A DNA stretch of 64,000 bases. Origin: Puerhibacterium puerhi (lineage in GTDB: Bacteria > Actinomycetota > Actinomycetes > Actinomycetales > Cellulomonadaceae). The notes beneath the pieces are model-generated. The model was given only the letters and a program-made list of their open reading frames with translations, did not search any database and was not told the origin of the DNA. The translations under genes and the position numbers were made by a program. This document shows, piece by piece, positions 8,550-20,165 of this stretch (positions are counted from its first letter, which is position 1; each line of letters begins with the position of its first letter). The stretch lies in NCBI RefSeq assembly GCF_009846865.1, contig NZ_WUWN01000014.1, forward strand, positions 1 through 64,000, written 5' to 3'.

Positions 8550-9939
<1,390 letters not shown>

Positions 9940-9953
<14 letters not shown>

Positions 9954-10064
9954 GTTGATGGCTCTGCCGGCACTCGCCGGCAGACCTGGTCAGAGGCCCG
10001 GATCGGCGGAAAACCGCAGGTCCGGGCCTCTTTCTGTCTCGGGGTGCTGAGGACACCTAGGGGC
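9940..10064. repeat. Left copy of the flanking repeat (attL-like), lpdA tail plus terminator
   Basis: This copy begins with TGATCAACTTCT, the last codons of lpdA, and continues through two hairpins to GGGGC at 10064. It aligns with 18097-18220 over its full length at roughly four identical bases in five by eye. Exact blocks include the 12-bp start, CCTGGTCAGAGGCCCGG (9985-10001) and GGTCCGGGCC (10019-10028). Confidence 0.8.
9964..10037 (+). terminator. lpdA terminator (two hairpins)
   Basis: The first hairpin is CTGCCGGC-ACTC-GCCGGCAG (9964-9983). The second pairs AGAGGCCCGGA (9992-10002) with TCCGGGCCTCT (10021-10031) and is followed by TTCTGTCT. Together they form a strong rho-independent terminator directly after the lpdA stop codon. 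Confidence 0.85.
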
Positions 10065-10093
10065 AGGAGGGGCCCGGAGAACCCATCCGCTAT

Positions 10094-10120
10094 GGCACGC
10101 GGGTGGCACGACGGGCACGA
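10094..10120. promoter_or_regulatory. Candidate integrase arm-type site, left end
   Basis: The 18-bp motif GGCACGCGGGTGGCACGA (10094-10111) contains two GGCACG boxes and is followed by a third (GGGCACGA, 10113-10120). The same 18 bases with one change occur inside the other end of the island at 18019-18036. Repeated short sites just inside both ends are typical arm-binding sites of tyrosine integrases. The role is inferred from position and repetition. Confidence 0.5.
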
Positions 10121-10134
10121 CCAGAGGTAGAGAC

Positions 10135-10578
10135 ATGGCTACCGAAAGGGTCTCCACCTGCTGCCAAGATGCTGCCGTGGATGACCCCCGAATCTGGATC
10201 ACTTTCCTTGCAGTTCTCGGCTTCGTTATGCCGGCAGGGGGATTGCTCAGCGCCTTCCGACATGCCCGGACGAGCGCTCGCGAGGTGAATACCCAGCTGT
10301 CCCGAGGCCTTCAACTCATGCGTCAGGAGGAGATGGAGCGCAGTGTTGTGCCTTACAGCGATCAACAGAGCCGGGCAGAGATCCGCCAGCGCTACGCGCG
10401 AATGCGTGCCGACGAGGGGATCCAGATGGATACGTACGGCTCCGTGGCGTTCGCGACCCTCACGGCCAAAGACCAGATCTGGAGCACAGCGCTCTCTGGG
10501 ATCAAGGGCGACCTCGTGTGGGTAGGTGTGGGACTTGTCGCTGGCGGCGTGGCCAGCGTCTGGTCCACCTGGATCTGA
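10135..10578 (+). CDS. Hypothetical membrane protein (147 aa), island cargo
   Basis: I do not recognise the family. The protein has one hydrophobic segment near residues 21-42 (WITFLAVLGFVMPAGGLLSAF), a charged middle of about 75 residues rich in Arg/Glu (ARTSAREVNTQLSRGLQL, RQEEMERSVV), and a C-terminal hydrophobic helix near 125-145 (LVWVGVGLVAGGVASVW). This suggests a hairpin membrane protein with a cytoplasmic helical loop. The ATG at 10135 follows AGAGGTAGAGAC; a GTG at 10177 (MDDPRIWITF) would remove a Cys-rich N-terminus and may be the true start. Codon use is less GC-biased than in the flanks. Confidence 0.5.
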   Translation: MATERVSTCCQDAAVDDPRIWITFLAVLGFVMPAGGLLSAFRHARTSAREVNTQLSRGLQLMRQEEMERSVVPYSDQQSRAEIRQRYARMRADEGIQMDTYGSVAFATLTAKDQIWSTALSGIKGDLVWVGVGLVAGGVASVWSTWI

Positions 10579-11162
10579 CGCCGGACGTCCCGCGCCGGTC
10601 AAGCTGCGGGCGCTCCGGCACACGTCTCCGCGTGGAGGGCGACAGGCCAGCAGACGCGGGGATGCAAGAGACGCCAGCGGCCGCACTTCTCGACCCTCGC
10701 ACCCAGATACCGCCCTGCGCGTGCAGCACGACGCGGTCGGCATGGCCGCTGGTGGTCGCCTGGAGACGCCAACGTCACGTTACCTCCGTTGGCGTTGTAC
10801 CCCACTTGATCTCGTCGACGGGGCCGCAGGCGAGAGCCGTCTGCCGTGGGCAACTTGGCCATCGACTCGGCGTTCCGGGGTCGCGAGCAGAGACGCGGCT
10901 GCTGAGGTCGTCGATCTGCGCTGGTCCTCTCCGGCAGGTTCGTCACTTGGGGCAGCCGTACTGCGCCGCGGACGCCAGCGGGGCGAGGTGCCCACGCTCG
11001 AGCAGCCGTCGGTCTGTGTGGCCCCTCCGATAAGGCGACGTGGTCCCGGTACCAGGACCTAGGCCGTCACGAGACGGCCGCGCGGTCGCCCTGCGAGCAA
11101 GACCGCACGCGCTCGTTTTCGACTGCCGTGCGAGGCTCAGCGGGACGGCACAGGCTCGCTTC
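10579..11162. other. 584-bp stretch without a convincing gene
   Basis: All reading frames here give Arg/Pro/Ser-rich low-complexity translations without recognisable motifs. One notable structure is the inverted repeat ACGCCAACG-N12-CGTTGGCGT at 10766-10795. The stretch may be decayed coding sequence of the island, possibly a lost integrase, but I see no residue pattern (such as R..H-R..Y) to support that. Confidence 0.5.
10766..10795. promoter_or_regulatory. 9-bp inverted repeat, possible operator or hairpin
   Basis: ACGCCAACG (10766-10774) pairs perfectly with CGTTGGCGT (10787-10795) across a 12-base spacer. It lies in an otherwise empty region of the island. The symmetric spacing suits a dimeric repressor site as well as a weak RNA hairpin; no T-run follows. 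Confidence 0.3.
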
Positions 11163-11381
11163 ATGGGTGATGACGTGAAGTTCAGCAAGGGCGACGAGGT
11201 CACGTGGTCCAGCCACGGGCAGACGGTGCACGGCGAGGTGGTCGAAGAGATCACCGAGGACACCGAGGCAGCGGGCCGGACGGTCCGGGCGTCGAAGGAC
11301 GATCCGCAGTACCGCGTGCGCAGCGACAAGAGCGGCAAGGACGCGGTGCACAAGCCGTCCGCGCTGAAGGACGAGAAGTGA
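11163..11381 (+). CDS. DUF2945 / HVA1-type TUDOR-like small protein
   Basis: A 72-aa basic-acidic protein. MGDDVKFSKGDEVTWSSHGQTVHGEVVEEI followed by QYRVRSDKSGKDAVHKPSAL matches the DUF2945 family, also called hypervirulence-associated protein TUDOR domain, a small beta-barrel of about 60-70 residues. The molecular role in bacteria is unknown. The ATG at 11163 gives the family N-terminus. Its stop codon overlaps the GTG of the next gene (GTGA), so the two are translationally coupled. Confidence 0.8.
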   Translation: MGDDVKFSKGDEVTWSSHGQTVHGEVVEEITEDTEAAGRTVRASKDDPQYRVRSDKSGKDAVHKPSALKDEK

Positions 11382-11686
11382 GCGACGAATTCGACGAGGC
11401 CGTCAACATGACGGCGAGCGAGCTGGAGCGGTGGCTGGACGCCGACGAGTCGAAGTCGGTGGGCCAGTCCGACGGCGGCGAGTCGGTCGGCCACGAGTCC
11501 GGCCGGCGGATCGTGGAGCTGCTGCGCAAGAAGAAGGGCGACCTGACCGACGACGACGAAGCGCACATGCGCAAGGTGGTGGGGTACGTCCACCGGCACC
11601 TCGCCCAGCGCCCGGACGGCGACGTTAAGGACACGAGGTGGCGCTACTCCCTGATGAACTGGGGACACGACCCGCTGAAGGACTGA
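11378..11686 (+). CDS. DUF3140 family protein
   Basis: A 102-aa soluble helical protein. The core MTASELERWLDADESKSVG, RRIVELLRKKKGDLTDDD, and VVGYVHRHLAQRP followed by KDTRWRYSLMNWGHDPLK is the conserved DUF3140 sequence, covering nearly the whole protein. It starts at a GTG that overlaps the stop of the DUF2945 gene by 4 bp. The same pair is common in actinobacteria and fungi-like genomes, often near DNA-repair or stress genes, but no activity is established. Confidence 0.85.
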   Translation: MSDEFDEAVNMTASELERWLDADESKSVGQSDGGESVGHESGRRIVELLRKKKGDLTDDDEAHMRKVVGYVHRHLAQRPDGDVKDTRWRYSLMNWGHDPLKD

Positions 11687-11818
11687 GCCGCAAGGCGCTT
11701 GGTTCTTAGCCGCGGTGTGGGGACTGCGTCTGTATCTGCATGCTCTTTACCGTTGGGGTGCGCAGTCTCTGAACTTGGGCTGGGTAGCCCCTAACGTGAG
11801 AGTCGTGTGGCCGCCATT

Positions 11819-12787
11819 TCAGAAATGATATTTGTGCTGGTCCTCCGCTAGGGGGAACAAGCCTAGAGCGATTGCGCTGGCCTCATCGAACGAGTCATGG
11901 TCGATCCATGGCTTCTGCTTGACATGGGTTTCCATCCAACGCCGGTCGGTCCTATCGTGCCTGATCGTGTAGGCGTGTGAAGGCGCAACGAGGTATGTCG
12001 ACGTTATGGCCCATTGCGTAGGAATGTACTCCACAGTGGGCCGGGCTAGGGGATGCTTGAGAGCGAAGAGCAGGGTTTCAGACAGGCGTGTGAGTGCATA
12101 CGCGGGGTCAGGTTTACCCCATACGTTGAGCGGCTCAAGGCACCGTGCGGCGTCTGTGAAGAGCGCGACTAAATCCATACTCTCGTGGGCCCATGACTTG
12201 ATCGGTTTGCCGTCCGCCGATTCGAGTGTGACCACCAGCTTCGTGTTCCACTCGAATCTGAATCTCTCCGAAATTTCGGGTCCCGCTGTTACGCGTACGC
12301 CCGCGGCGTCGATTAAGTTTGAACGTAGGGCCGCTTCGATCGCCGCACTGAGCGTCTCCATGGTCGGTGCGTCAGTTGCGATTGATTCGAACAGTTCCTT
12401 CTTGTCGGCGCGCTCAGAAGCCAGTCTTTCGTCTACCCGGTCGCTCAGATCGCTAAGATCCTTCAAGCCCTCGACCCGTGTATCGAGATCCTCGAATGTG
12501 GTGCGCAATGCCCCAGTGGTGGCCTCCTCCACATCGTCGACCCGTTGCTGCAGCCGGGACGCGACGAATTCGATCGGCGCGACCAGCAGGATCGTCGTGC
12601 CGAGCCCCAGAAGCGCAGATTCGATCCACTCCCCAAGCCACACGGGTGCGGTTCCCGGATGAGACGCGATCCAGGGGGTCAGGAACGAGGCGCCGATGCA
12701 AACGAGGCCCACAACGCATGTGGCGGCAATCGCCTGCTTGCTCGTCACTCGGTCGAGCCACCGGGATCCGCGAACGTTCGAAGTCAC
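11819..12787 (-). CDS. Two-TM, coiled-coil membrane protein of unknown function, island cargo
   Basis: A 322-aa protein I cannot assign to a family. Two transmembrane helices lie near residues 19-38 (AIAATCVVGLVCIGASFLTPW) and 50-70 (ESALLGLGTTILLVAPIEFVA). Residues about 75-135 form a charged heptad-like helix (RLQQRVDDVEEATTGALRTT, DLSDLSDRVDERLASERADK). The rest is a soluble alpha/beta domain of about 180 residues with many aromatic positions near the end (RRWMETHVKQKPWIDHDSFD). Base composition is visibly less GC-rich than the chromosome, consistent with transfer. The architecture suits a membrane-anchored sensor or effector; that is inference. Confidence 0.55.
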   Translation of the reverse strand: MTSNVRGSRWLDRVTSKQAIAATCVVGLVCIGASFLTPWIASHPGTAPVWLGEWIESALLGLGTTILLVAPIEFVASRLQQRVDDVEEATTGALRTTFEDLDTRVEGLKDLSDLSDRVDERLASERADKKELFESIATDAPTMETLSAAIEAALRSNLIDAAGVRVTAGPEISERFRFEWNTKLVVTLESADGKPIKSWAHESMDLVALFTDAARCLEPLNVWGKPDPAYALTRLSETLLFALKHPLARPTVEYIPTQWAITSTYLVAPSHAYTIRHDRTDRRWMETHVKQKPWIDHDSFDEASAIALGLFPLAEDQHKYHF

Positions 12788-13016
12788 CGTCGAATGGTGG
12801 CAGACCTTCCACCGTGCCTCTGGCGCCGGCGAGCCCTCGGCGCAGTGGGGGCGCTCCCGTAATCGACTCGGCCGCTAGGACCGCCCCGTCGTGTTGGGCT
12901 GTGCCTGCCGCCGCGGGAGCGGGCATGGCTTGGTAGTTGCGTATCCCGTACGAGCGGACCTCTGTGATCCCGCCGCGTAGGGCAGGGGCACTGGTGATGC
13001 GGGTCGGTTGAGGCGC

Positions 13017-13110
13017 TCAGTAGTGAGCTCGGGAAGCCGGCTCAGGTACACCGTGGCCGTCGAGTAGCAGGTTGGCGCTGGTCATCGTCATCGCCGGGCC
13101 CGCCGCCGCG
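13017..13110 (-). pseudogene. Possible remnant of a STAS-domain gene (C-terminal tail)
   Basis: On the minus strand the translation AAAAGPAMTMTSANLLLDG and a downstream stop at 13017 resemble the C-terminal part of the intact STAS protein of this window at 36913-37233 (AAAAAPAVTMTSVSLPLGD). The DNA also aligns over about 45 bp (around GCTGGTCATCGTCA). Upstream similarity is lost at about 13110. The match is short and Ala-rich, so this is tentative. Confidence 0.35.
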
Positions 13111-13124
13111 GCTCCGGCCCCGCC

Positions 13125-13310
13125 TACCTCTACGGCACGCCGGAGACCCCCGCCGACGAGGAGAAGTGCGCCCTCCTCTACTGGCTCGCTGACCAGTTCA
13201 AGCGCTATCAGTTGCACGGCCACGGCCTGAGCGAGGACGCGGCCGGCACCCCCGCGCCACGAAGGGCACGGAGTGTCCGACACCGAGCACGACCGACCGA
13301 GGGTGAGTAG
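13125..13310 (+). pseudogene. Orphan coding-like fragment
   Basis: The frame from 13125 reads YLYGTPETPADEEKCALLYW, then LADQFKRYQLHGHGLSEDAA, before a Arg-rich tail and a TAG at 13308. The composition is that of a real helical protein rather than a GC-rich shadow, but there is no start codon or ribosome-binding site and the upstream frame is broken. I do not recognise the family. Confidence 0.35.
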
Positions 13311-13434
13311 CCTCACTCGGCGGGGGGAGCGGCGGCGATGGCCCTCGACGAGCCCCCGGATGCGGCCCTCCGAGTACCGCGACTGGGATGCCACAGAGCC
13401 GTGAATGACCTGTGCGAGGGCGCGCGCGCGTGTG

Positions 13435-13453
13435 CGTCGGGCGGGGCCCGACG
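13435..13453. terminator. Hairpin downstream of the IS110 transposase
   Basis: CGTCGGGC-GGG-GCCCGACG forms a perfect 8-bp stem with a 3-base loop, 20 bp past the transposase stop codon (the gene is on the minus strand). There is no T-run, so it may be an end structure of the insertion sequence rather than a classic terminator. Confidence 0.45.
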
Positions 13454-13472
13454 TGTTGTTGCGGGCGGTGGG

Positions 13473-14705
13473 TTAGGCGGCGGGTTCGAGGTGGACGGTG
13501 TGGCCGAGGTGTTCGAGCTGGGCGACCAGTCGGCGGGTGTGGGCCTCGGTGTTGCGGCGGGTGTGCCAGTCCGGGCCGAGGTCTTGGTAGGGCTCGTCGC
13601 GGGCGAGCATGTAGTAGGCGCTGACCAGGATGGAGTGGGCCACGGCGATCTGGGCGCGGCCGGCCCCGCGGCGGCGGGCGAGGCGGTCGTGCTGGGCGGC
13701 GAGGTGGTTGCGCCCGTGCATGCGGCCGGTGGCGGCGGCGGCCTCGACCAGGGCGGAGGTGAGCCACTTGTTGCCGTGGCGTTTGCCGGTCGGGGCGCGC
13801 CGGCCGGCGGACTCGGAGATCCCCGGGGCCAGGCCGGCCCAGGCGGCCAAGTGGGCGGCCGAGGGGAAGCGGGACATGTCCGCGCCGGTCTCGGCGATGA
13901 TCACCTGGGCGGCCTTGGCGCCCACTCCGGGGATGGTCTGCAGCAACTGAAGCTGGTGGGCCCATGGGGCGCAGGCGGTGGCGATGGCCTGGTCGAGGTC
14001 GGCCAGGGCGTGTTCGACCAGCTCCAGGCGGTCCAGGATCGCGGCGGCCAGGACGGCGTGGTGGGCCTCGAAGTGGCCGTCCAGCGCCTGGGCGAGCTCG
14101 GGGATCTTGGTGCGCATGCGGGTCTTGGCCATCTCGGCCAGCACGAGCGGATCGCGTTGCCCGGCGATCATCGCCCGCAGCATGGCCCGGGCGGAGACGG
14201 TGGTCAGGGACGAGGCGACCGAGGACAGCTTGATCGAGGCATCCTCGAGCATCAGCTCCAGGCGGGTGGCCTCGCGGGTGCGGTCGCCCATCAGCTGCAT
14301 CCGTAGCGGGTCAGCATCCGCAGCTGCCGGATCGGTGGGGGCGGGACGAACGAGGCGGTCAGCAGCCCGTGCTCGCGCAGCTGGGCGATCCACTCCGCGT
14401 CGCGCACGTCGCTCTTGCGCCCCGGCACCGCCTTCATGTGGGCGGAGTTGAGCAGCCAGACCTCCATGACCTCCTCGAGGCAGTAGAACGGCGGCTTCCA
14501 GTAGGTCGAGGTCGACTCCATCGCCGCGATCGTGACCCCGGCCTCGACCAGCCATGCGCGCATGACCCGCAGCGCCCCGGCCGTGGTGCGGAAGGTGCGC
14601 GTCTCGCTGGCCCGCCGGCCTCCGGGGGGCGGGGGTGCGCACGCAGACCGTGACCGTCGCCTTGCCCACGTCCAGCCCGGCGACGCGTTCGAACAGCACT
14701 TCCAT
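13473..14705 (-). pseudogene. IS110-family transposase with two frameshifts
   Basis: Homology runs from MEVLFERVAGLDVGKATVTV (start 14705, ribosome-binding site GGGAGG) to HTVHLEPAA at 13473, about 410 codons, full length for IS110. The DEDD-type catalytic domain (LDVGK, MESTSTYWKP, SDVRDAEWIA) and the C-terminal transposase_20 domain (LQTIPGVGAKAAQVIIAETG) are both recognisable, but in two frames. An extra base in the G6 run at 14624-14629 leaves frame, and a missing base near 14302 (LTRY followed by GCS rather than RMQLMGD) returns it. The catalytic middle is thus out of frame, so the gene is inactive unless these are sequencing errors. It sits inside the island. Confidence 0.85.
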
Positions 14706-15042
14706 GACCGGCCTCCCTTCGGCCGGCCGGCCGCGACCACCGCGGCCGGCGCCGCCCGGAAGGCCCTCTGCCAGGACACAGACCCGCGTGCTCGTAGCGA
14801 CAATCCACCGGCACCCGAGGACCTCGCGCCATACACCGTCTACGGGCTCGCCCGCACCAGTGTGGTCCGGCGTCGCCGGGCGCACCCCGATTCTCAGCGA
14901 CCACCGCGGCGACCGCCAGGCCGCCATCCGTTACACCTCTGGCAAGTCGCGGCAGGTGGGTTTCGTCCGCACGTAACCGCAGGGTCGGAGGTTCGCGTCG
15001 GTTGCATGCACTAGAGTCGGCAGTCGTAGGAGGAGGGTGTCG
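14706..15042. other. IS110 upstream non-coding region (possible bridge RNA) and promoter of the nuclease gene
   Basis: No gene is supported over 337 bp. The part adjoining the transposase start (14706 to about 14960) would be the IS110 5' non-coding end, which in IS110-group elements encodes the bridge RNA that guides recombination. It contains a perfect hairpin at 14726-14750 and further GC-rich inverted sequence. I cannot fix the insertion-sequence boundary. The last 80 bases lead into the plus-strand gene and end with a strong ribosome-binding site. Confidence 0.4.
14726..14750 (-). ncRNA. Perfect hairpin in IS110 leader, candidate bridge-RNA element
   Basis: GCCGGCCGCG-ACCAC-CGCGGCCGGC makes a 10-bp stem with a 5-base loop, 21 bp upstream of the transposase start on its own strand. 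Stable stem-loops in this non-coding region are what bridge RNAs of IS110-group elements contain. Whether guide loops complementary to the flanks exist needs a structural model. Confidence 0.3.
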
Positions 15043-15783
15043 ATGTCACTAGTGGTGCAGATTGAGACATCCTCACCACGCCCTGGACGTCGGTTCGAGC
15101 CGGTTCAAGAGCGCGCACTACACGCAGCAGCCACGGCTGCGTGCCACAGCCTTCCAGGTGCAGCGCGGGGGCTTGTTGTAATCCCGGAGTTCTCGGGTCC
15201 GATAGGTATACCTGACTTCACAGCGTTCATAGGCGACGCAGGGGATCTCATTCGGCGCCAGCGGCTTAGCGTACCCGCGACGACCAATGAAATCGATGCA
15301 GGAATTCTCTCTGTCGCCCACGTGCAGAGGCCGCGAACGGCCGCGAGCATGGCTCAATCCTTGAACTGGCCGCTGAGCACCATCGCAGGCCGGCTTCGCG
15401 GCCTGGTTCTCCGGGGTTCTCTATTGGAGCCGACTCCTGGACGCTTTGTGCGACCAGCCGAACTCTCAGCCCGCGGAAGGCTATACGCTGTCGAAGCGAA
15501 GGTGGACGACTGGCGGTCCGGGCTCCGACAGGTGCGAACGTATCGCGTATGGGCAGATGCGTACGTCCTTGTCATGGCTAAGGTCGCGGAGCGCGCACTT
15601 GGCCAATTGACGGACGAAGTGACGCGCGACCGCGGTGGTCTCGTCGTTGATGGCGAATGGATCCTTCGCCCGCGTATCGGCCGTTTAAGTGCTCACCGGA
15701 AGCTTCAGGCCTGGGAGATGTTCGCCAACGCGTCGCGTTGTGGGTTAGAAGCGCCAGCCCTCGCTCCGGGCGTACATGCGTAG
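15043..15783 (+). CDS. PD-(D/E)XK-like nuclease with internal winged-helix segment, island cargo
   Basis: A 246-aa protein with hallmarks of the restriction-endonuclease fold: Asp58 in GPIGIPDFTAFIGD, then after an insertion Glu151-Ala-Lys153 in YAVEAKVDDWRSGLRQVRTY, followed by WADAYVLVM, the usual strand after the E-x-K motif. Between them residues about 95-140 look like a winged helix-turn-helix (AASMAQSLNWPLSTIAGRLR). The ATG at 15043 has an AGGAGGAGG ribosome-binding site; a GTG six bases earlier is the alternative. It converges on the 387-aa gene with a 39-bp tail overlap. Lower GC and context suggest a transferred defence gene. The family name is unknown to me; the nuclease call is inferred from motifs. 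Confidence 0.55.
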   Translation: MSLVVQIETSSPRPGRRFEPVQERALHAAATAACHSLPGAARGLVVIPEFSGPIGIPDFTAFIGDAGDLIRRQRLSVPATTNEIDAGILSVAHVQRPRTAASMAQSLNWPLSTIAGRLRGLVLRGSLLEPTPGRFVRPAELSARGRLYAVEAKVDDWRSGLRQVRTYRVWADAYVLVMAKVAERALGQLTDEVTRDRGGLVVDGEWILRPRIGRLSAHRKLQAWEMFANASRCGLEAPALAPGVHA

Positions 15784-16908
15784 CCCTTCTTGCAGAGGAT
15801 CGATCCATTCCGCGGACCGATCGCGAATGCCGCTTGATGAAGACACGGCCGCCCACCCCGCGCGGGCATTAGAGTACATCCCATCGAGAATTCGAAATCG
15901 ATCCTCGTAGCTTCGGCCCGACGCAACAGCAAGCACTGCGCCACTTACGGCACTGATGTGGTGGAGGAACGAGGCCCTTGGGCCGGGCGCTGCGGGAAGC
16001 CCGCCGAGACGGGCAGCAAGTGCCGGGTCTTGCTGGCCCAAGAGTTGACCGTCGCGCTTGCTGAGTGTACCGAGTAGGCCAGCGACCGTGGGTCGCTCGT
16101 ACCAACTAGCAATGCCGTTTCCGGTGGTCCGAGCGGCGTAGTCGGCGTAGGCCATCACCCGCTGCCGCTTGTCCCAGCCGCTCCCTACGGATGTCGCTCC
16201 CGCAGCAACTGCCGGCAACGCAGCGAAATCTCCGTGTGATATGTGAACTGGGCTGTATTCGCTCAGTGCGCGCACTGTGCGACAGCGCCCAAATACCTCG
16301 TTTGGTGTGACACTTGGCGGCGGGTCGTTGTCGGGCTGGACAAACGAAATGAGCCAGCCACCCGGAGTCAGCGCGGCGAGCGCTCCGACATGAGCGTCGA
16401 GGTCGGTGCCGTCGCTCCAGAAACTGCCGGTTCCGGCGATGGTCAAAGTGGCCGCGGGGTCGCGTTCCACGGCGAATCGCGCGGTGTCGAGTGCAATTGC
16501 GCTCAGGTTGTTGAGGCCTGACGGAAGCAGCGGGGTAGGCGCTAGGTGGGGTGCACCAATTTCATCTTGGAGCCTATAGACGCGGCGCACATGCTCGTCA
16601 CGATAGGCCGCTTGCGAGAGGTCCCCGACCGGTCCGCCCCAGAGTGGGTACTCGGAGTAGTAGCGAAGGTCTCCGACCCCTGTCATTTGAAGGACATGGG
16701 TAGCGGGGTCGAACCAGTAGGGGATGCCAGCAGACCGGAACTCTTGCGATCGCGGTCCCAGTCCCGGCTTGTTGCCGGAACCGCCGCGATGCCTGTAGGG
16801 CGAGGCCCAGGGAGAGATAACCGCCCCAGCGGCGTAACCCGCCGCGGCGGCATCAGTGATCCAGCCGACCTGGAATGGTCTTGGGCTGTCTTCGACGTAC
16901 GCGGTCAT
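15745..16908 (-). CDS. Unrecognised 387-aa protein coupled to a kinase, island cargo
   Basis: I do not recognise the family. The translation alternates hydrophobic strands and helices over the whole length (AATLTIAGTGSFW, PGGWLISFVQPDND, SPVHISHGDFAALPAVAAGA, TSVGSGWDKRQRVMAYADYA), which suits a TIM-barrel-type enzyme with a conserved-looking SGWDKRQR loop. The C-terminal 120 residues are mostly helical with an HHISAVSGAVLAVASGRSYE segment. The start ATG overlaps the stop of the kinase gene by 4 bp, so the two proteins are made together. It converges with the nuclease-like gene. No signal peptide or membrane helix is visible. An enzyme acting in a kinase-linked pathway is inference only. Confidence 0.5.
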   Translation of the reverse strand: MTAYVEDSPRPFQVGWITDAAAAGYAAGAVISPWASPYRHRGGSGNKPGLGPRSQEFRSAGIPYWFDPATHVLQMTGVGDLRYYSEYPLWGGPVGDLSQAAYRDEHVRRVYRLQDEIGAPHLAPTPLLPSGLNNLSAIALDTARFAVERDPAATLTIAGTGSFWSDGTDLDAHVGALAALTPGGWLISFVQPDNDPPPSVTPNEVFGRCRTVRALSEYSPVHISHGDFAALPAVAAGATSVGSGWDKRQRVMAYADYAARTTGNGIASWYERPTVAGLLGTLSKRDGQLLGQQDPALAARLGGLPAAPGPRASFLHHISAVSGAVLAVASGRSYEDRFRILDGMYSNARAGWAAVSSSSGIRDRSAEWIDPLQEGLRMYARSEGWRF

Positions 16909-17753
16909 GGCGTGGCAAGAAGTGCGTCGCGAAGAGCGGCACCGTTGAGGTACCTGCGCGCTGGCTGGGGGTGGAGCGTGCGCATCACCAGGGAAGCTTG
17001 CTCCTGGGTGAGGTCGGGACGGAGCGTTGCGAGCGGTTGGAGGGAGCCGCTTCGAAGGCGATCGAAGTACTCAAGATCATTTCCGTGGTAGGGATACGGC
17101 GAGGTGCCGGTCAGGGCGGTATACATAAGGATTCCGACCTGGAAGATGTCCGACATGGGCATCGGACCGCCGCTGTAACTATTGAGGTGCTCGGGAGTCA
17201 GATAACCCGGCGTGCCGGGTTGTCCGGCGACTGTGAGGCCAGACCTGAGGGTATGCCGCGCGAATCCGAAATCAAGCACCTTGTACGTGCCGTTTGTGAG
17301 CCTCCGTACGTTGTTGGCGCTCAAGTCCCGATGGATCACTGCCTTTTCGTGACCCGCGGCCAACCCCACGGCGACCTGGCGCGCCATCTCTCGCACATCC
17401 GTCCAGGCCCAAGGAACTCGCCTAGCGAGGATCGCTCCGAGATCTTCGCCGTCGAGGTACTCCTCAAGCCATGCCGCGCCGTGTACAGGGTCGCCGAGCT
17501 CGATCAAGGTCGACTCGACGTGCACGACGTTGGGGCATTCGAGGCTTGCGAGGAGATCCACTTCGCGCTCGGCCCTCTTGAGAGTCTCGTCCGTAGCGAA
17601 GTCGACAGCGACTACCTTGAGGACGCACTCAGTTCCGTCCCGCTCGACCAGGCGCACAGCTTTCTGGCCGCCGACGGCGCCAATGGACCCCTTGTCGACG
17701 AGGTTGAGAGCAACTAGTGCTTCCTTGACGAGAGCGTCGTCGGCCACTGCCAT
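16905..17753 (-). CDS. Serine/threonine protein kinase, island cargo
   Basis: A 282-aa stand-alone Hanks-type kinase. Visible elements are Lys46 in CVLKVV, the alpha-C Glu64 in REVDLLASL, the catalytic loop HRDLSANNV (Asp143, Asn148), the metal motif DFGFAR (Asp161), GTPGYLTPEHL as the activation segment end, and SDIFQVGILMYTALTG in the F-helix. All catalytic residues are present, so it should be active. There is no transmembrane helix or PASTA domain, unlike PknB-type kinases. The downstream 387-aa gene overlaps by 4 bp. Compact soluble kinases coupled to an unknown enzyme are common in phage-defence islands; the role here is inferred. Confidence 0.88.
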   Translation of the reverse strand: MAVADDALVKEALVALNLVDKGSIGAVGGQKAVRLVERDGTECVLKVVAVDFATDETLKRAEREVDLLASLECPNVVHVESTLIELGDPVHGAAWLEEYLDGEDLGAILARRVPWAWTDVREMARQVAVGLAAGHEKAVIHRDLSANNVRRLTNGTYKVLDFGFARHTLRSGLTVAGQPGTPGYLTPEHLNSYSGGPMPMSDIFQVGILMYTALTGTSPYPYHGNDLEYFDRLRSGSLQPLATLRPDLTQEQASLVMRTLHPQPARRYLNGAALRDALLATP

Positions 17754-18096
17754 GCGGGGAGGCTATCGCCACGGACGGTGACTTCGGCGGAAGGACACGT
17801 CTTGCGGGTGAATTCACCCTGCATCGGTCTCGTTCGACGCTGAGACTGCAGCGCAGTAGTGCGGAACGAATTCCCACGGCGTGGGCTCGGTGGCAGCGGG
17901 AGTTGCGGGGAAGTGTCCAGTCTCGTCGGCTGGCGCCGGGCGCTTCCGCGCTGCATCGCAACAGCTACTCGCTAGCCTGTGGAGTGCGGCCCTGGCGAGG
18001 CGTTCTGGCGTCCAGAGCGGCACGCAGGTGGCACGAGGTGAAGCCGAGAGCAGCAGAATCGGCGGAATTCCAACGGTCTTCGGCAACTGGCCTACT
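17754..18096. other. 343-bp island right-end region without genes
   Basis: No supported reading frame is present. The left part should hold the promoter of the leftward kinase operon. The right part contains the GGCACG-type motif (18019-18036) and ends at the attR-like repeat. It corresponds to one arm of an attachment site. Confidence 0.5.
18019..18036. promoter_or_regulatory. Candidate integrase arm-type site, right end
   Basis: GGCACGCAGGTGGCACGA differs at one base from the motif just inside the left end (10094-10111) and has the same orientation. It lies 60 bp inside the right flanking repeat. A match of 17 in 18 bases at both ends is unlikely to be chance, though the binding protein is missing from the window. 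Confidence 0.5.
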
Positions 18097-18220
18097 TGAT
18101 CAACTTCTAGTCGATGGCGTCCGCCGGCACCTGGCGGCAGGCCTGGTCAGAGGCCCGGCTCTGCGGAAGACCGCCGGTCCGGGCCCCTCTCTGTCGCGGG
18201 CCGTCGAGGACTCCTGGGGC
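18097..18220. repeat. Right copy of the flanking repeat (attR-like)
   Basis: This copy begins abruptly at TGATCAACTTCT, where the in-frame reading ATC AAC TTC TAG repeats the LpdA C-terminus Ile-Asn-Phe-stop, and continues through the terminator-like hairpin to GGGGC. Upstream of 18097 there is no similarity to lpdA, so the repeat edge is sharp. The sequence downstream is presumably the original chromosome. Confidence 0.8.
18149..18196 (+). terminator. Second copy of the lpdA terminator
   Basis: GGCCCGG (18152-18158) pairs with CCGGGCC (18179-18185), extended by two further outer pairs around one mismatch, followed by TCTCTGTC. It is the counterpart of the lpdA hairpin at 9992-10031 and has compensatory changes in the inner stem region. 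Confidence 0.65.
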
Positions 18221-18302
18221 GAGTCTGCAAGGAGCGCGAGTCGGGTCGAACGGAACCGCAACCCCCGTCGACGGTCGGCGGGTCCGCTCCTAGCGTTGCC
18301 CC

Positions 18303-19055
18303 ATGGCTGGCTCGCGGCGGGTTCTGATTGTTGCGACGAACGCTCATCGGTTCGAGAGGGTGGGTTTCCGGACGGGGTTGTGGCTCAGTGAGCTCACCCA
18401 CTTCTGGGATGTCGTCGAGGATGCGGGGTTCGCGATGGACATCGCCAGCCCGTCCGGCGGCAAGGTCCCGCTGGACCCGGAGAGTCTGCTGCTCACGGAG
18501 ATGGGCAGTGCCGTGGGAGTGAAGGGCCAGTTGGCCAAGCGATACGAAGACCCGGACTTCATGCGCCTCCTCGACGCGACCACCGCCGTCGCGGATGTGG
18601 ACGCCGCTCAGTACGACGCCATCTATCTGACTGGCGGTCACGGCGTCATGTTCGACTTCCGCGATTCGCCGCTCGCGGAGCTGGTGGCACGGTTCTACGA
18701 CGCGGGCAGGGTCGTCTCCGCGGTGTGTCACGGACCCTGTGGCTTGCTTGACGTGCAGCTGGGCAGCGGCGGGGCGCTCGTGGACGGCAAGCAGGTGACG
18801 GGGTACTCCTGGACCGAGGAGGTCGCCGCCAGGCGCAATGACGCCGTGCCGTTCAGCCTCGAGGAGGAGCTTCAGAGGCGCGGCGGGAGATACAGCAAGT
18901 CCAAGGTGCCGTTCAGGTCGCACGTCGTCGAGGACGGGCGGTTGATCACGGGACAGAATCCGAGGAGCGCGCCTGACGTTGCGGAAGCAGTCGTCAAGAT
19001 GCTGAACGCGACCACCGATCAGTCCCCGTCCCGTTCGACCACCCTCGGGGAGTAG
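18303..19055 (+). CDS. DJ-1/PfpI family protein (Hsp31-like type 1 glutamine amidotransferase domain)
   Basis: A 250-aa soluble protein of the DJ-1/PfpI superfamily, Hsp31-like branch. The nucleophile elbow is Cys142 in VVSAVCHGPCGLL, the acidic partner is Glu30 in GLWLSELTHFW, and YDAIYLTGGHGVMFDFRDS precedes it. Members act as glyoxalase III, chaperones or protein deglycases against reactive aldehydes. Its place beside a formaldehyde-dehydrogenase cluster and a second DJ-1 gene supports a role in aldehyde stress. It lies just outside the island's right edge and has its own promoter region. Confidence 0.88.
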   Translation: MAGSRRVLIVATNAHRFERVGFRTGLWLSELTHFWDVVEDAGFAMDIASPSGGKVPLDPESLLLTEMGSAVGVKGQLAKRYEDPDFMRLLDATTAVADVDAAQYDAIYLTGGHGVMFDFRDSPLAELVARFYDAGRVVSAVCHGPCGLLDVQLGSGGALVDGKQVTGYSWTEEVAARRNDAVPFSLEEELQRRGGRYSKSKVPFRSHVVEDGRLITGQNPRSAPDVAEAVVKMLNATTDQSPSRSTTLGE

Positions 19056-19163
19056 TTGCAGGGCCTCCCGCCGACCGACCGTCGTGCCGGGCGCCGCCTC
19101 GCTCGCCGCGCCCGGCGGCAACCCGATGGACCTGTCGACGCGCACGACGGCGAACCGCGGACG

Positions 19164-20165
19164 CTAGGGCGCCGCAGGCACGTAGCACCCCTCGCGCTCC
19201 GCGCGGACCGCGGCCAACGTCCTCGACGGCGCCTGGAGCTTGTGCAGGATGTGTTCCACGTGCGTGGCCACCGTGCGGCCCGAGACCCCGAGCCGCCTGG
19301 CGATCTGCTGGTTGGAGCGGCCGTCGATCACCAGCCCCAGCACCTGGAGCTCGCGCGGGGTGAGCCCTCGGTGCTCGGCGGCGGGCGCCACCACGACCAG
19401 GCCGAGGACGCAGTCCGGGAGGTCGGCCGCCGCCAGGACGGTCAGGCGGACGTGCTCCGCCGTCGCGTGGCCGTCGTGCGCCGGCCACAGGAAGGACCGG
19501 TAGACCTGGCCGTCACGGAGCGTCGCGCGAGCGATCCGCACGACGGGCGAGTCCCCGGCCAGGAGCGCGTCGCCCGCGAGACCCGGGAGCGGACCGACGG
19601 TCTCGTCGTCCAGCAGGACGGCCCCGGCGGTGGCGCCCCGCACGATCCGTGCGCTGGCGGCCAGCGCACGCATGGGTGACAACGCCCGGGCGATCAGCGA
19701 CGAGAGCCTTCCCAGGCGGTCCCGCAGCCACGCGGGCGGCGGGTCGCCCGCTGTCGACAGCAGGCCCAGGAACCCCACGTACCGGCCTCCGGTGTCGAAG
19801 AGGGCCGTGCCCAAGCCTCCCCTGAGGCCGGCGGGAAGCAGGCACTCCGCCCCGGAGGGCAGCTCCTCCAGCGCGAGCGGGAAGTCCGCGACGCTCATCG
19901 GGGTCGCGCTGCGGTCGAGCCCCACGAGCTCGATCTCCCGGGCGACGGACGGACCGTCCAGGTAGTCGACGACGGATCGATCCAGCCCCGTGCTGGCGAC
20001 GTAGGCGATACGGCTCGTCCCGGGCACGGTGACGGCGACCCACAGGGTGTCGAAGGTCGGCGCCCAGCGGTGCAGCGTCTCCACGACGGCCTGCGCTCGT
20101 TCGGCCAGGGGCGCGCTGGATGCGGCGATCGCAGCCATCTCGGCCATGGGGCGAACCGGGCGCAT
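19164..20165 (-). CDS. GAF-like sensor LuxR-family transcriptional regulator
   Basis: A 333-aa regulator. Residues 1 to about 170 resemble a GAF-type sensor, and the C-terminal 60 residues are a LuxR helix-turn-helix (LTPRELQVLGLVIDGRSNQQ, IARRLGVSGRTVATHVEHIL). There is no receiver domain, so it probably senses a ligand directly. It is divergent from the formaldehyde dehydrogenase gene, with an 18-bp palindrome between them, and so is the likely regulator of that cluster. The ATG at 20165 gives MRPVRPMAEMAAIAAS; an internal Met six residues later is possible. Confidence 0.83.
   Translation of the reverse strand: MRPVRPMAEMAAIAASSAPLAERAQAVVETLHRWAPTFDTLWVAVTVPGTSRIAYVASTGLDRSVVDYLDGPSVAREIELVGLDRSATPMSVADFPLALEELPSGAECLLPAGLRGGLGTALFDTGGRYVGFLGLLSTAGDPPPAWLRDRLGRLSSLIARALSPMRALAASARIVRGATAGAVLLDDETVGPLPGLAGDALLAGDSPVVRIARATLRDGQVYRSFLWPAHDGHATAEHVRLTVLAAADLPDCVLGLVVVAPAAEHRGLTPRELQVLGLVIDGRSNQQIARRLGVSGRTVATHVEHILHKLQAPSRTLAAVRAEREGCYVPAAP

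What the first reader, a model, noticed from the sequence alone, without database searches (positions are those of the whole stretch)
15043..17753. Kinase + unknown 387-aa enzyme + PD-(D/E)XK-like nuclease: candidate undescribed defence module
Seen: an active-looking soluble Ser/Thr kinase overlaps by 4 bp a 387-aa protein of no family known to me, and both converge (39-bp overlap) on a protein with Asp58 and Glu151-x-Lys153 nuclease motifs wrapped around a winged helix. GC is lower than in the flanks and the set sits in an island. Known: kinases and PD-(D/E)XK nucleases are recurrent parts of anti-phage systems. Inference: the three genes form one system in which phosphorylation controls an enzyme or nuclease.
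Basis: partly seen in the sequence, partly recalled or inferred. Interest (0 to 1): 0.7.

Follow-up and report, generated by a model that had tools for sequence, protein, structure and literature searches.

The report
Mobile kinase, TGT-like and nuclease module
Three adjoining genes (a protein kinase, a barrel-shaped protein that resembles enzymes which swap bases in transfer RNA, and a probable DNA-cutting enzyme) travel together between distantly related bacteria, often near virus-defence genes, and look like an undescribed immune system against viruses.

Summary
In detail: kinase (16905-17753 -), 387-aa protein (15745-16908 -) and 246-aa nuclease-like protein (15043-15783 +) overlap by 4 and 39 bp. 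It is a conserved module: 16 loci found in all, on actinomycete chromosomes, plasmids and two viral-collection contigs; 16 of 16 carry the three genes in the same order and orientation, as type A (12, window included) or type B (4). Haloactinopolyspora shares with Brachybacterium and with Actinokineospora about 2.9 kb, just the three genes, at 90-91% DNA identity; dN/dS is 0.06-0.13 in each gene. Several copies adjoin known defence genes. Models give a PD-(D/E)XK fold interrupted by a winged helix, and a TIM barrel whose 50 listed VIA-align entries are all tRNA-guanine transglycosylases (Z 18.3-19.3). Type B middle proteins bear a TGT-like CxCxxC...H motif. Against this, profile comparison does not detect TGT, and the TGT nucleophile seems lost. 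Best reading: a kinase-gated restriction module with a TGT-fold base-recognition part. Defence and mechanism are inferred. My literature searches found no description of it.

The parts
16905..17753 (-). Ser/Thr protein kinase, 282 aa, catalytic domain only
   Evidence: Pfam Pkinase 6.3e-30; HRDLSxxN and DFG-type motifs; E64, D143, D161 invariant in 16 of 16, K46 in 15 of 16
15745..16908 (-). TGT-fold TIM-barrel protein, 387 aa (type A middle protein), proposed base-recognition part
   Evidence: Model pLDDT 76.5, pTM 0.82; all 50 listed VIA-align entries are TGTs, Z 18.3-19.3; D67, G237, A238, G244 invariant in the 16-row alignment; no profile-level match to TGT
15043..15783 (+). PD-(D/E)XK nuclease-fold protein, 246 aa, winged helix inserted between the D58 strand and the ExK strand
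   Evidence: Model pLDDT 85.5, pTM 0.81; VIA-align 3dnx Z 9.4 and NucS 2vld Z 8.9, then winged helices; E49, D58, E151, K153, Q163 invariant in 16 of 16
9963..10062 (+). Left copy of the direct repeat that bounds the island, directly after lpd
   Evidence: 95% identical copy in same-genus genome G396
18120..18219 (+). Right copy of the direct repeat
   Evidence: 82% identity over 100 nt to the left copy, 88% over 66 nt
13473..14633 (-). IS110-family transposase in the same island (context, not part of the module)
   Evidence: Pfam Transposase_20 6.7e-20

Best explanation
The three genes are a complete, horizontally mobile module, most likely an anti-phage or anti-mobile-element system of actinobacteria. 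Proposed working: the TGT-fold protein is the recognition part. It binds or flips out a guanine-type base in foreign nucleic acid (possibly a 7-deazaguanine), without the base exchange of true TGTs because the nucleophile aspartate is missing. The PD-(D/E)XK protein, which carries its own winged helix, is the effector that cuts DNA. The kinase, made together with the recognition protein, switches the pair from silent to active by phosphorylating one of them. Shown: one conserved unit, purifying selection on all three genes in the pairs tested, kinase and nuclease motifs, predicted folds, mobility. Inferred: defence role, DNA as substrate, recognition role of the barrel, kinase as switch.
For: 16 of 16 loci keep all three genes in one layout. 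The reverse test with the nuclease as query gave 11 distinct strong loci, all with the three genes; 4 of these (G147, G814, L084, L085) were new, the others were already known or in the profile. Haloactinopolyspora shares just the three-gene segment with each of two other genera (2,914 and 2,906 bp at 90-91%). dN/dS 0.06-0.13 in nine gene-pair tests. Type IIG enzyme and PLD-SNF2 helicase, AbiD and AbiV, or PIN and CHAT genes nearby; copies on plasmids and, in L085, beside terminase genes. Nuclease fold and residues. TGT fold and a CxCxxC...H motif in type B. The window's genome lacks QueC and TGT; 10 of 12 host genomes lack QueC and 8 of 10 lack TGT.
Against: No defence assay exists. Profile comparison does not support TGT ancestry: type A against TGT scores like other TIM barrels (HisF scored higher), and type A against type B middle proteins is not significant (15 of 100 shuffles reach the score; a smaller test was barely above 40 shuffles). 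Foldseek alone ranks generic barrels first at E 3e-3; VIA-align lists 50 entries, so the best non-TGT Z is unknown. The Leifsonia kinase has Glu at K46. Brachybacterium, Serinicoccus and Haloactinopolyspora copies showed no defence gene among the neighbours scanned. Two hosts have QueC and two have TGT.
Confidence: 0.38

Rival explanations
1. Abortive-infection system aimed at tRNA: the TGT-fold protein binds tRNA, as true TGTs do, and senses or alters it on infection; the kinase and nuclease then arrest or kill the cell.
For: TGT fold; AbiD and AbiV adjoin one copy and PIN genes two others.
Against: The effector is a PD-(D/E)XK protein with a winged helix, a DNA-type arrangement. No antitoxin-like partner is conserved: the shared segment holds only the three genes.
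Confidence: 0.2
2. Selfish or housekeeping role on mobile elements: an addiction, transfer-control or gene-regulation module rather than an anti-phage system. The winged-helix protein would act mainly as a regulator under kinase control.
For: Copies lie on plasmids and next to relaxase, integrase or transposase genes; one type B copy is annotated as an Rrf2-type regulator.
Against: E49, D58, E151, K153 and Q163 are kept in 16 of 16, which a pure regulator would not need; several chromosomal copies lie beside restriction or Abi genes.
Confidence: 0.17
3. Dpd-like modification-restriction: the TGT-like protein puts a 7-deazaguanine into host DNA as a self mark and the nuclease cuts unmarked DNA.
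For: DpdA is a TGT homologue in such a system (PMC12839542, passages); TGT fold here.
Against: The position of the TGT nucleophile appears to be Gly; no DpdB or DpdC gene in the shared segment; 10 of 12 hosts, the window's included, lack QueC.
Confidence: 0.05
4. The middle protein is some other TIM-barrel enzyme (for instance a hydrolase or aldolase-like barrel) whose TGT likeness is superficial.
For: hhalign shows no TGT signal; Foldseek alone lists KDO8P synthase, DERA and other barrels first.
Against: All 50 VIA-align entries are TGTs from an archaeon, a bacterium and human, with 274-298 residues aligned; type B proteins have a TGT-like zinc motif.
Confidence: 0.2

Closest known systems
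tRNA-guanine transglycosylase superfamily (TGT, archaeosine TGT, DpdA)
   Same: Predicted fold: VIA-align Z 18.3-19.3 over 274-298 residues for the 50 listed entries; an Asp (D67) at the strand where TGT has its general base (my strand matching); type B has CxCxxC followed by His 17-21 residues on.
   Different: No profile-level similarity; nucleophile position appears to be Gly; type A has no conserved Cys; sits in a kinase-nuclease module.
Dpd system (DpdA and partners)
   Same: A TGT-type protein and restriction-type functions in one gene cluster.
   Different: No preQ0-inserting partners in the shared segment; most hosts lack QueC (10 of 12); three genes only.
BREX-related capture systems with TGT (PMC12839542, passages)
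   Same: A TGT homologue in a predicted defence cluster.
   Different: Those have PglZ, BrxC-like ATPase, HerA/FtsK and others; none of these is in the shared three-gene segment.
PD-T4-6 and other kinase defence genes (PADLOC)
   Same: Kinase domain: best PADLOC hit PD-T4-6, 5.8e-38.
   Different: The kinase here is a bare catalytic domain tied to two other genes; the PADLOC hits spread over many kinase models and reflect the shared kinase domain.
PD-(D/E)XK nucleases such as NucS and protein 3dnx
   Same: Core fold (Z 8.9 over 95 residues; Z 9.4 over 134 residues) and E-D-ExK-Q residues.
   Different: A winged helix splits the core between the D58 strand and the ExK strand; no family match for the window protein.

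Membership tests
TGT superfamily (387-aa protein) | TGT-type (beta/alpha)8 barrel with helical C-terminal part | tested here: met
   By predicted model only: all 50 listed VIA-align entries are TGTs, Z 18.3-19.3, rmsd 3.2-3.6
TGT superfamily (387-aa protein) | Sequence or profile match to TGT (PF01702) | tested here: not met
   No Pfam match; hhalign at the level of controls
TGT superfamily (387-aa protein) | Zinc site CxCxxC...H (recalled) | tested here: not met
   Type A: no column with Cys in 6 or more of 12. Type B, 4 of 4, has such a motif
TGT superfamily (387-aa protein) | Catalytic Asp pair: general base and nucleophile (recalled) | tested here: inconclusive
   D67 invariant at the general-base strand, G242 at the nucleophile position, by strand order only; no residue-level superposition available
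Dpd system | Partner genes and a source of preQ0 | tested here: not met
   The shared segment holds three genes; QueC in 2 of 12 hosts, not in the window's genome. DpdB/DpdC were not searched for genome-wide
PD-(D/E)XK nuclease (246-aa protein) | Core alpha-beta fold with acidic-acidic-xK residues | tested here: met
   Model, NucS match, E49, D58, E151, K153, Q163 in 16 of 16
PD-(D/E)XK nuclease (246-aa protein) | Nuclease activity | not testable with these tools
   Needs an assay
Ser/Thr protein kinase | Protein kinase domain with catalytic Lys, HRD Asp and DFG Asp | tested here: met
   Pfam 6.3e-30; D143 and D161 in 16 of 16, K46 in 15 of 16
PD-T4-6 (kinase defence gene) | Single-gene kinase system of that family | tested here: inconclusive
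   Kinase-domain match 5.8e-38 among at least 25 kinase models; here tied to two partner genes
Anti-phage defence system | Lies with known defence genes in several genomes | tested here: met
   Clear in L009 and L012; PIN, CHAT or TnsA-like genes in L011 and L015; weaker in L002; only selected neighbours of 8 loci scanned
Anti-phage defence system | Reduces phage infection | not testable with these tools
   Needs an experiment

The most novel reading that the evidence does not exclude
A TGT-fold protein turned from making 7-deazaguanine bases into detecting, or hydrolytically removing, them in phage DNA, coupled to a nuclease and licensed by a kinase: an immune system against phages that shield their DNA with 7-deazaguanines, in hosts most of which cannot make that base.
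Probability: 0.12. Interest if true: 0.9.

Novelty: new variant of a known kind. Interest (0 to 1): 0.68.

Why it matters
It adds a clearly delimited three-gene unit to the candidate immune systems of actinobacteria, with two protein families that the libraries searched do not name. If the TGT-fold part senses modified bases, it would show how bacteria counter phages that hide behind 7-deazaguanine, which mycobacteriophage Rosebush carries at about 28% of its G (PMC6884629, passages). The winged helix inside a nuclease core and the kinase gate are directly testable.

Tried and rejected
Chance or artefact: rejected, since 15 further loci keep the layout. Hit G216 (L005/L008) was a chance match: no module gene by tblastn at E<=1. 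The single-sequence scan of genome contigs and two viral scans with the middle proteins found nothing. The class search with the nuclease profile gave 62 of 394 genomes at E<=1e-3; 4 were strong (E<=2e-15) and kept; the other 58 were dropped without fetching their neighbourhoods. Most of these match the winged-helix part only; one, G069, is E 1.4e-8 over 46 residues. That search missed the type B nuclease of G313, found later, so absence there is weak.

Proof of TGT ancestry by hhalign failed: type A against TGT scores 20-22 and HisF 22.3; type B against TGT is within its shuffles; type A against type B is reached by 15 of 100 shuffles, although a smaller alignment scored 22.0 against a maximum of 20.8 in 40 shuffles. 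Six E. coli TIM barrels served as single-sequence controls, which is a weaker control than profiles. VIA-align lists 50 entries only, so the best non-TGT Z is unknown.

The Dpd-like self-mark was weakened by QueC in 2 of 12 and TGT in 2 of 10 hosts; 12 of 79 class genomes have TGT, so lack of TGT alone says little. Rfam gave nothing at 9500-18700. No integrase was recognised among the three non-module island proteins scanned. An empty site could not be shown.

Literature: searches listed no paper that I recognised as describing this gene set. Passages of PMC12839542, PMC10853773, PMC6884629 and PMC13092281 were read; all others were seen as listings. This does not prove it unpublished.
Full report
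WHAT IS THERE. The kinase (16905-17753, minus) overlaps the 387-aa gene (15745-16908, minus) by 4 bp; the 246-aa gene (15043-15783, plus) meets it tail to tail with 39 bp shared. Of the three only the kinase matches a family at E<=1 in Pfam, PADLOC, NCBIfam or PHROGs. GC is 0.630 against 0.678 and 0.719 beside it.

THE ISLAND. A direct repeat, 82% identical over 100 nt, lies at 9963-10062 and 18120-18219. The left copy follows the stop of lpd; by eye the likeness runs back into the last codons of lpd (sequences printed). Both copies fold into hairpins (z -6.1 and -2.0). A same-genus genome (G396) is collinear with the window up to 10140 and has one copy of the repeat, 95% identical to the left one, in the 40 kb I fetched. 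The window's right flank (18303-20165) was not found in G396 beyond short weak matches, so no empty site is shown. The segment also holds an IS110-family transposase.

A CONSERVED UNIT. A search with the 387-aa protein found a Dietzia plasmid; 3 true hits of 394 class genomes including the window, plus one chance match; only the window's own genome of 200 in its family; and, with a four-row profile, seven loci: Leifsonia, Serinicoccus, Nocardioides, Actinokineospora, Brachybacterium, Haloactinopolyspora and Microbacterium. Kinase and nuclease lie beside each. The reverse test, with the nuclease, gave 4 strong genomes of 394 in the class, 6 of 396 in the order and 2 viral-collection contigs. 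Four of the 11 were new (G147, G814, L084, L085); the others were already known or in the query profile, so they are no independent test. G147 revealed a second type, B; its middle protein then found plasmids of Arthrobacter FB24 and Kineococcus and genome G313. Types A and B have related nucleases (hhalign probability 99.1, E 1e-18) and kinases (99.9, E 7e-36). In all there are 16 loci, 12 of type A and 4 of type B. In 16 of 16 the kinase and middle gene share a strand and the nuclease is opposed; in 13 the kinase and middle genes overlap, in 15 the middle and nuclease genes do.

MOBILITY AND SELECTION. Brachybacterium and Haloactinopolyspora share 2,914 bp at 90.7% identity, Actinokineospora and Haloactinopolyspora 2,906 bp at 90.3%: the three genes plus short flanks. 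Actinokineospora and Brachybacterium share 4,001 bp at 89.5%, which adds a ychF gene, and a further 314 bp. dN/dS is 0.06-0.13 in each of nine tests (three genes, three pairs); the more distant pairs mostly had saturated dS. All three proteins are thus maintained in these lineages.

NEIGHBOURS. Selected neighbours of 8 loci (L002 and L009-L015) were scanned. Leifsonia: MmeI-like type IIG enzyme (PADLOC 1.9e-251) and PLD-SNF2 helicase, also an integrase and a relaxase. Actinokineospora: AbiD (2.5e-58) and AbiV (3.2e-30). Nocardioides: PIN and CHAT. Microbacterium: TnsA-like and PIN-TPR-GreABC. Dietzia: Eco57I-type methylase pieces around an IS (weaker). Serinicoccus: transposases. Haloactinopolyspora: relaxase and Prim-Pol. 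Brachybacterium: ychF. The viral-collection contig L085 carries terminase matches about 1 and 3 kb from the module.

THE NUCLEASE. The model (pLDDT 85.5) has the second strand (59-63) and the ExK strand (146-153) separated by a winged helix (83-136). E49, G55, D58, E151, K153, W157, Q163 and D172 are invariant in 16 of 16. Profile searches see the winged helix only. VIA-align adds 3dnx (Z 9.4, 134 residues, rmsd 5.1) and the NucS nuclease (Z 8.9, 95 residues, rmsd 2.7); the other listed rows are mostly winged helices.

THE MIDDLE PROTEIN. The model (pLDDT 76.5, pTM 0.82) is a TIM barrel with a helical tail. VIA-align lists tRNA-guanine transglycosylases from an archaeon, a bacterium and human in all 50 entries shown (Z 18.3-19.3, 274-298 residues). 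In the viral structure library the first match is a queuine tRNA-ribosyltransferase, weakly (E 6e-3). Against this, Foldseek alone puts generic barrels first, and hhalign does not detect TGT; HisF scored slightly higher than the TGT profile, and type A against type B is not significant. Type B proteins carry an invariant CxCxxC with a His 17-21 residues on, like the TGT zinc site as I recall it; type A has no conserved Cys. Matching the eight strands in order (my inference), D67, invariant in the 16-row alignment, falls where TGT has its general base, and the nucleophile position falls on G242 of a GxGW motif (12 of 12 in type A). Because the A-B alignment is weak, identity across types is tentative. 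Recognition or hydrolysis fits better than base exchange.

HOW IT MAY WORK. Of the host genomes searched, 10 of 12 lack QueC and 8 of 10 lack TGT; the window's lacks both. A 7-deazaguanine self mark is thus unlikely in most, and such a base in DNA would be foreign. Mycobacteriophages do carry it (PMC6884629, passages). I propose that the barrel recognises a base, the nuclease cuts and the kinase licenses. The order of steps and every substrate are inferred.

NOVELTY. TGT homologues are known in Dpd and BREX-related capture systems (PMC12839542, passages), and kinases in BREX type 2. The searches named under Tried and rejected gave no account of this three-gene set. I rate it a new variant of a known kind: kinase- and nuclease-bearing defence modules.

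Noticed in passing
window 9963-10062 and 18120-18219: Imperfect direct repeat of terminator-like hairpins at the 3' end of lpd; it looks like the footprint of integration at a gene end.
   Followed up: partly
window 10140-64000: Apart from one distant reversed match near 63.1 kb (G402), no stretch of 250 bp or more right of 10140 matched the 40 kb fetched from each of G396 and G402; the variable region may be far longer than the island.
   Followed up: no
window 11819-12787 (-): 322-aa protein with no family match above chance in four libraries, in the same island.
   Followed up: no
L009 7156-8004: The Leifsonia kinase has Glu at the catalytic Lys position (K46) while its partners look intact.
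   Followed up: no
L072 11051-13328: Beside a type B module: by eye a 5'-nucleotidase-like protein, an ImmA-like metallopeptidase and an HTH protein.
   Followed up: no
L084 2465-3793: A second Ser/Thr kinase gene (PHROG 2361, 6e-31) about 4 kb from the module kinase on the same viral-collection contig.
   Followed up: no
L076 8216-9100: A gene annotated as nuclease-related (NERD) domain protein adjoins the Kineococcus type B module.
   Followed up: no
L012 and L013: In two genera the module sits next to ychF, and the shared DNA runs into that gene.
   Followed up: no
G069:C42:9194-9331: Nuclease-profile hit of E 1.4e-8 over 46 residues within a 1121-aa open frame.
   Followed up: no
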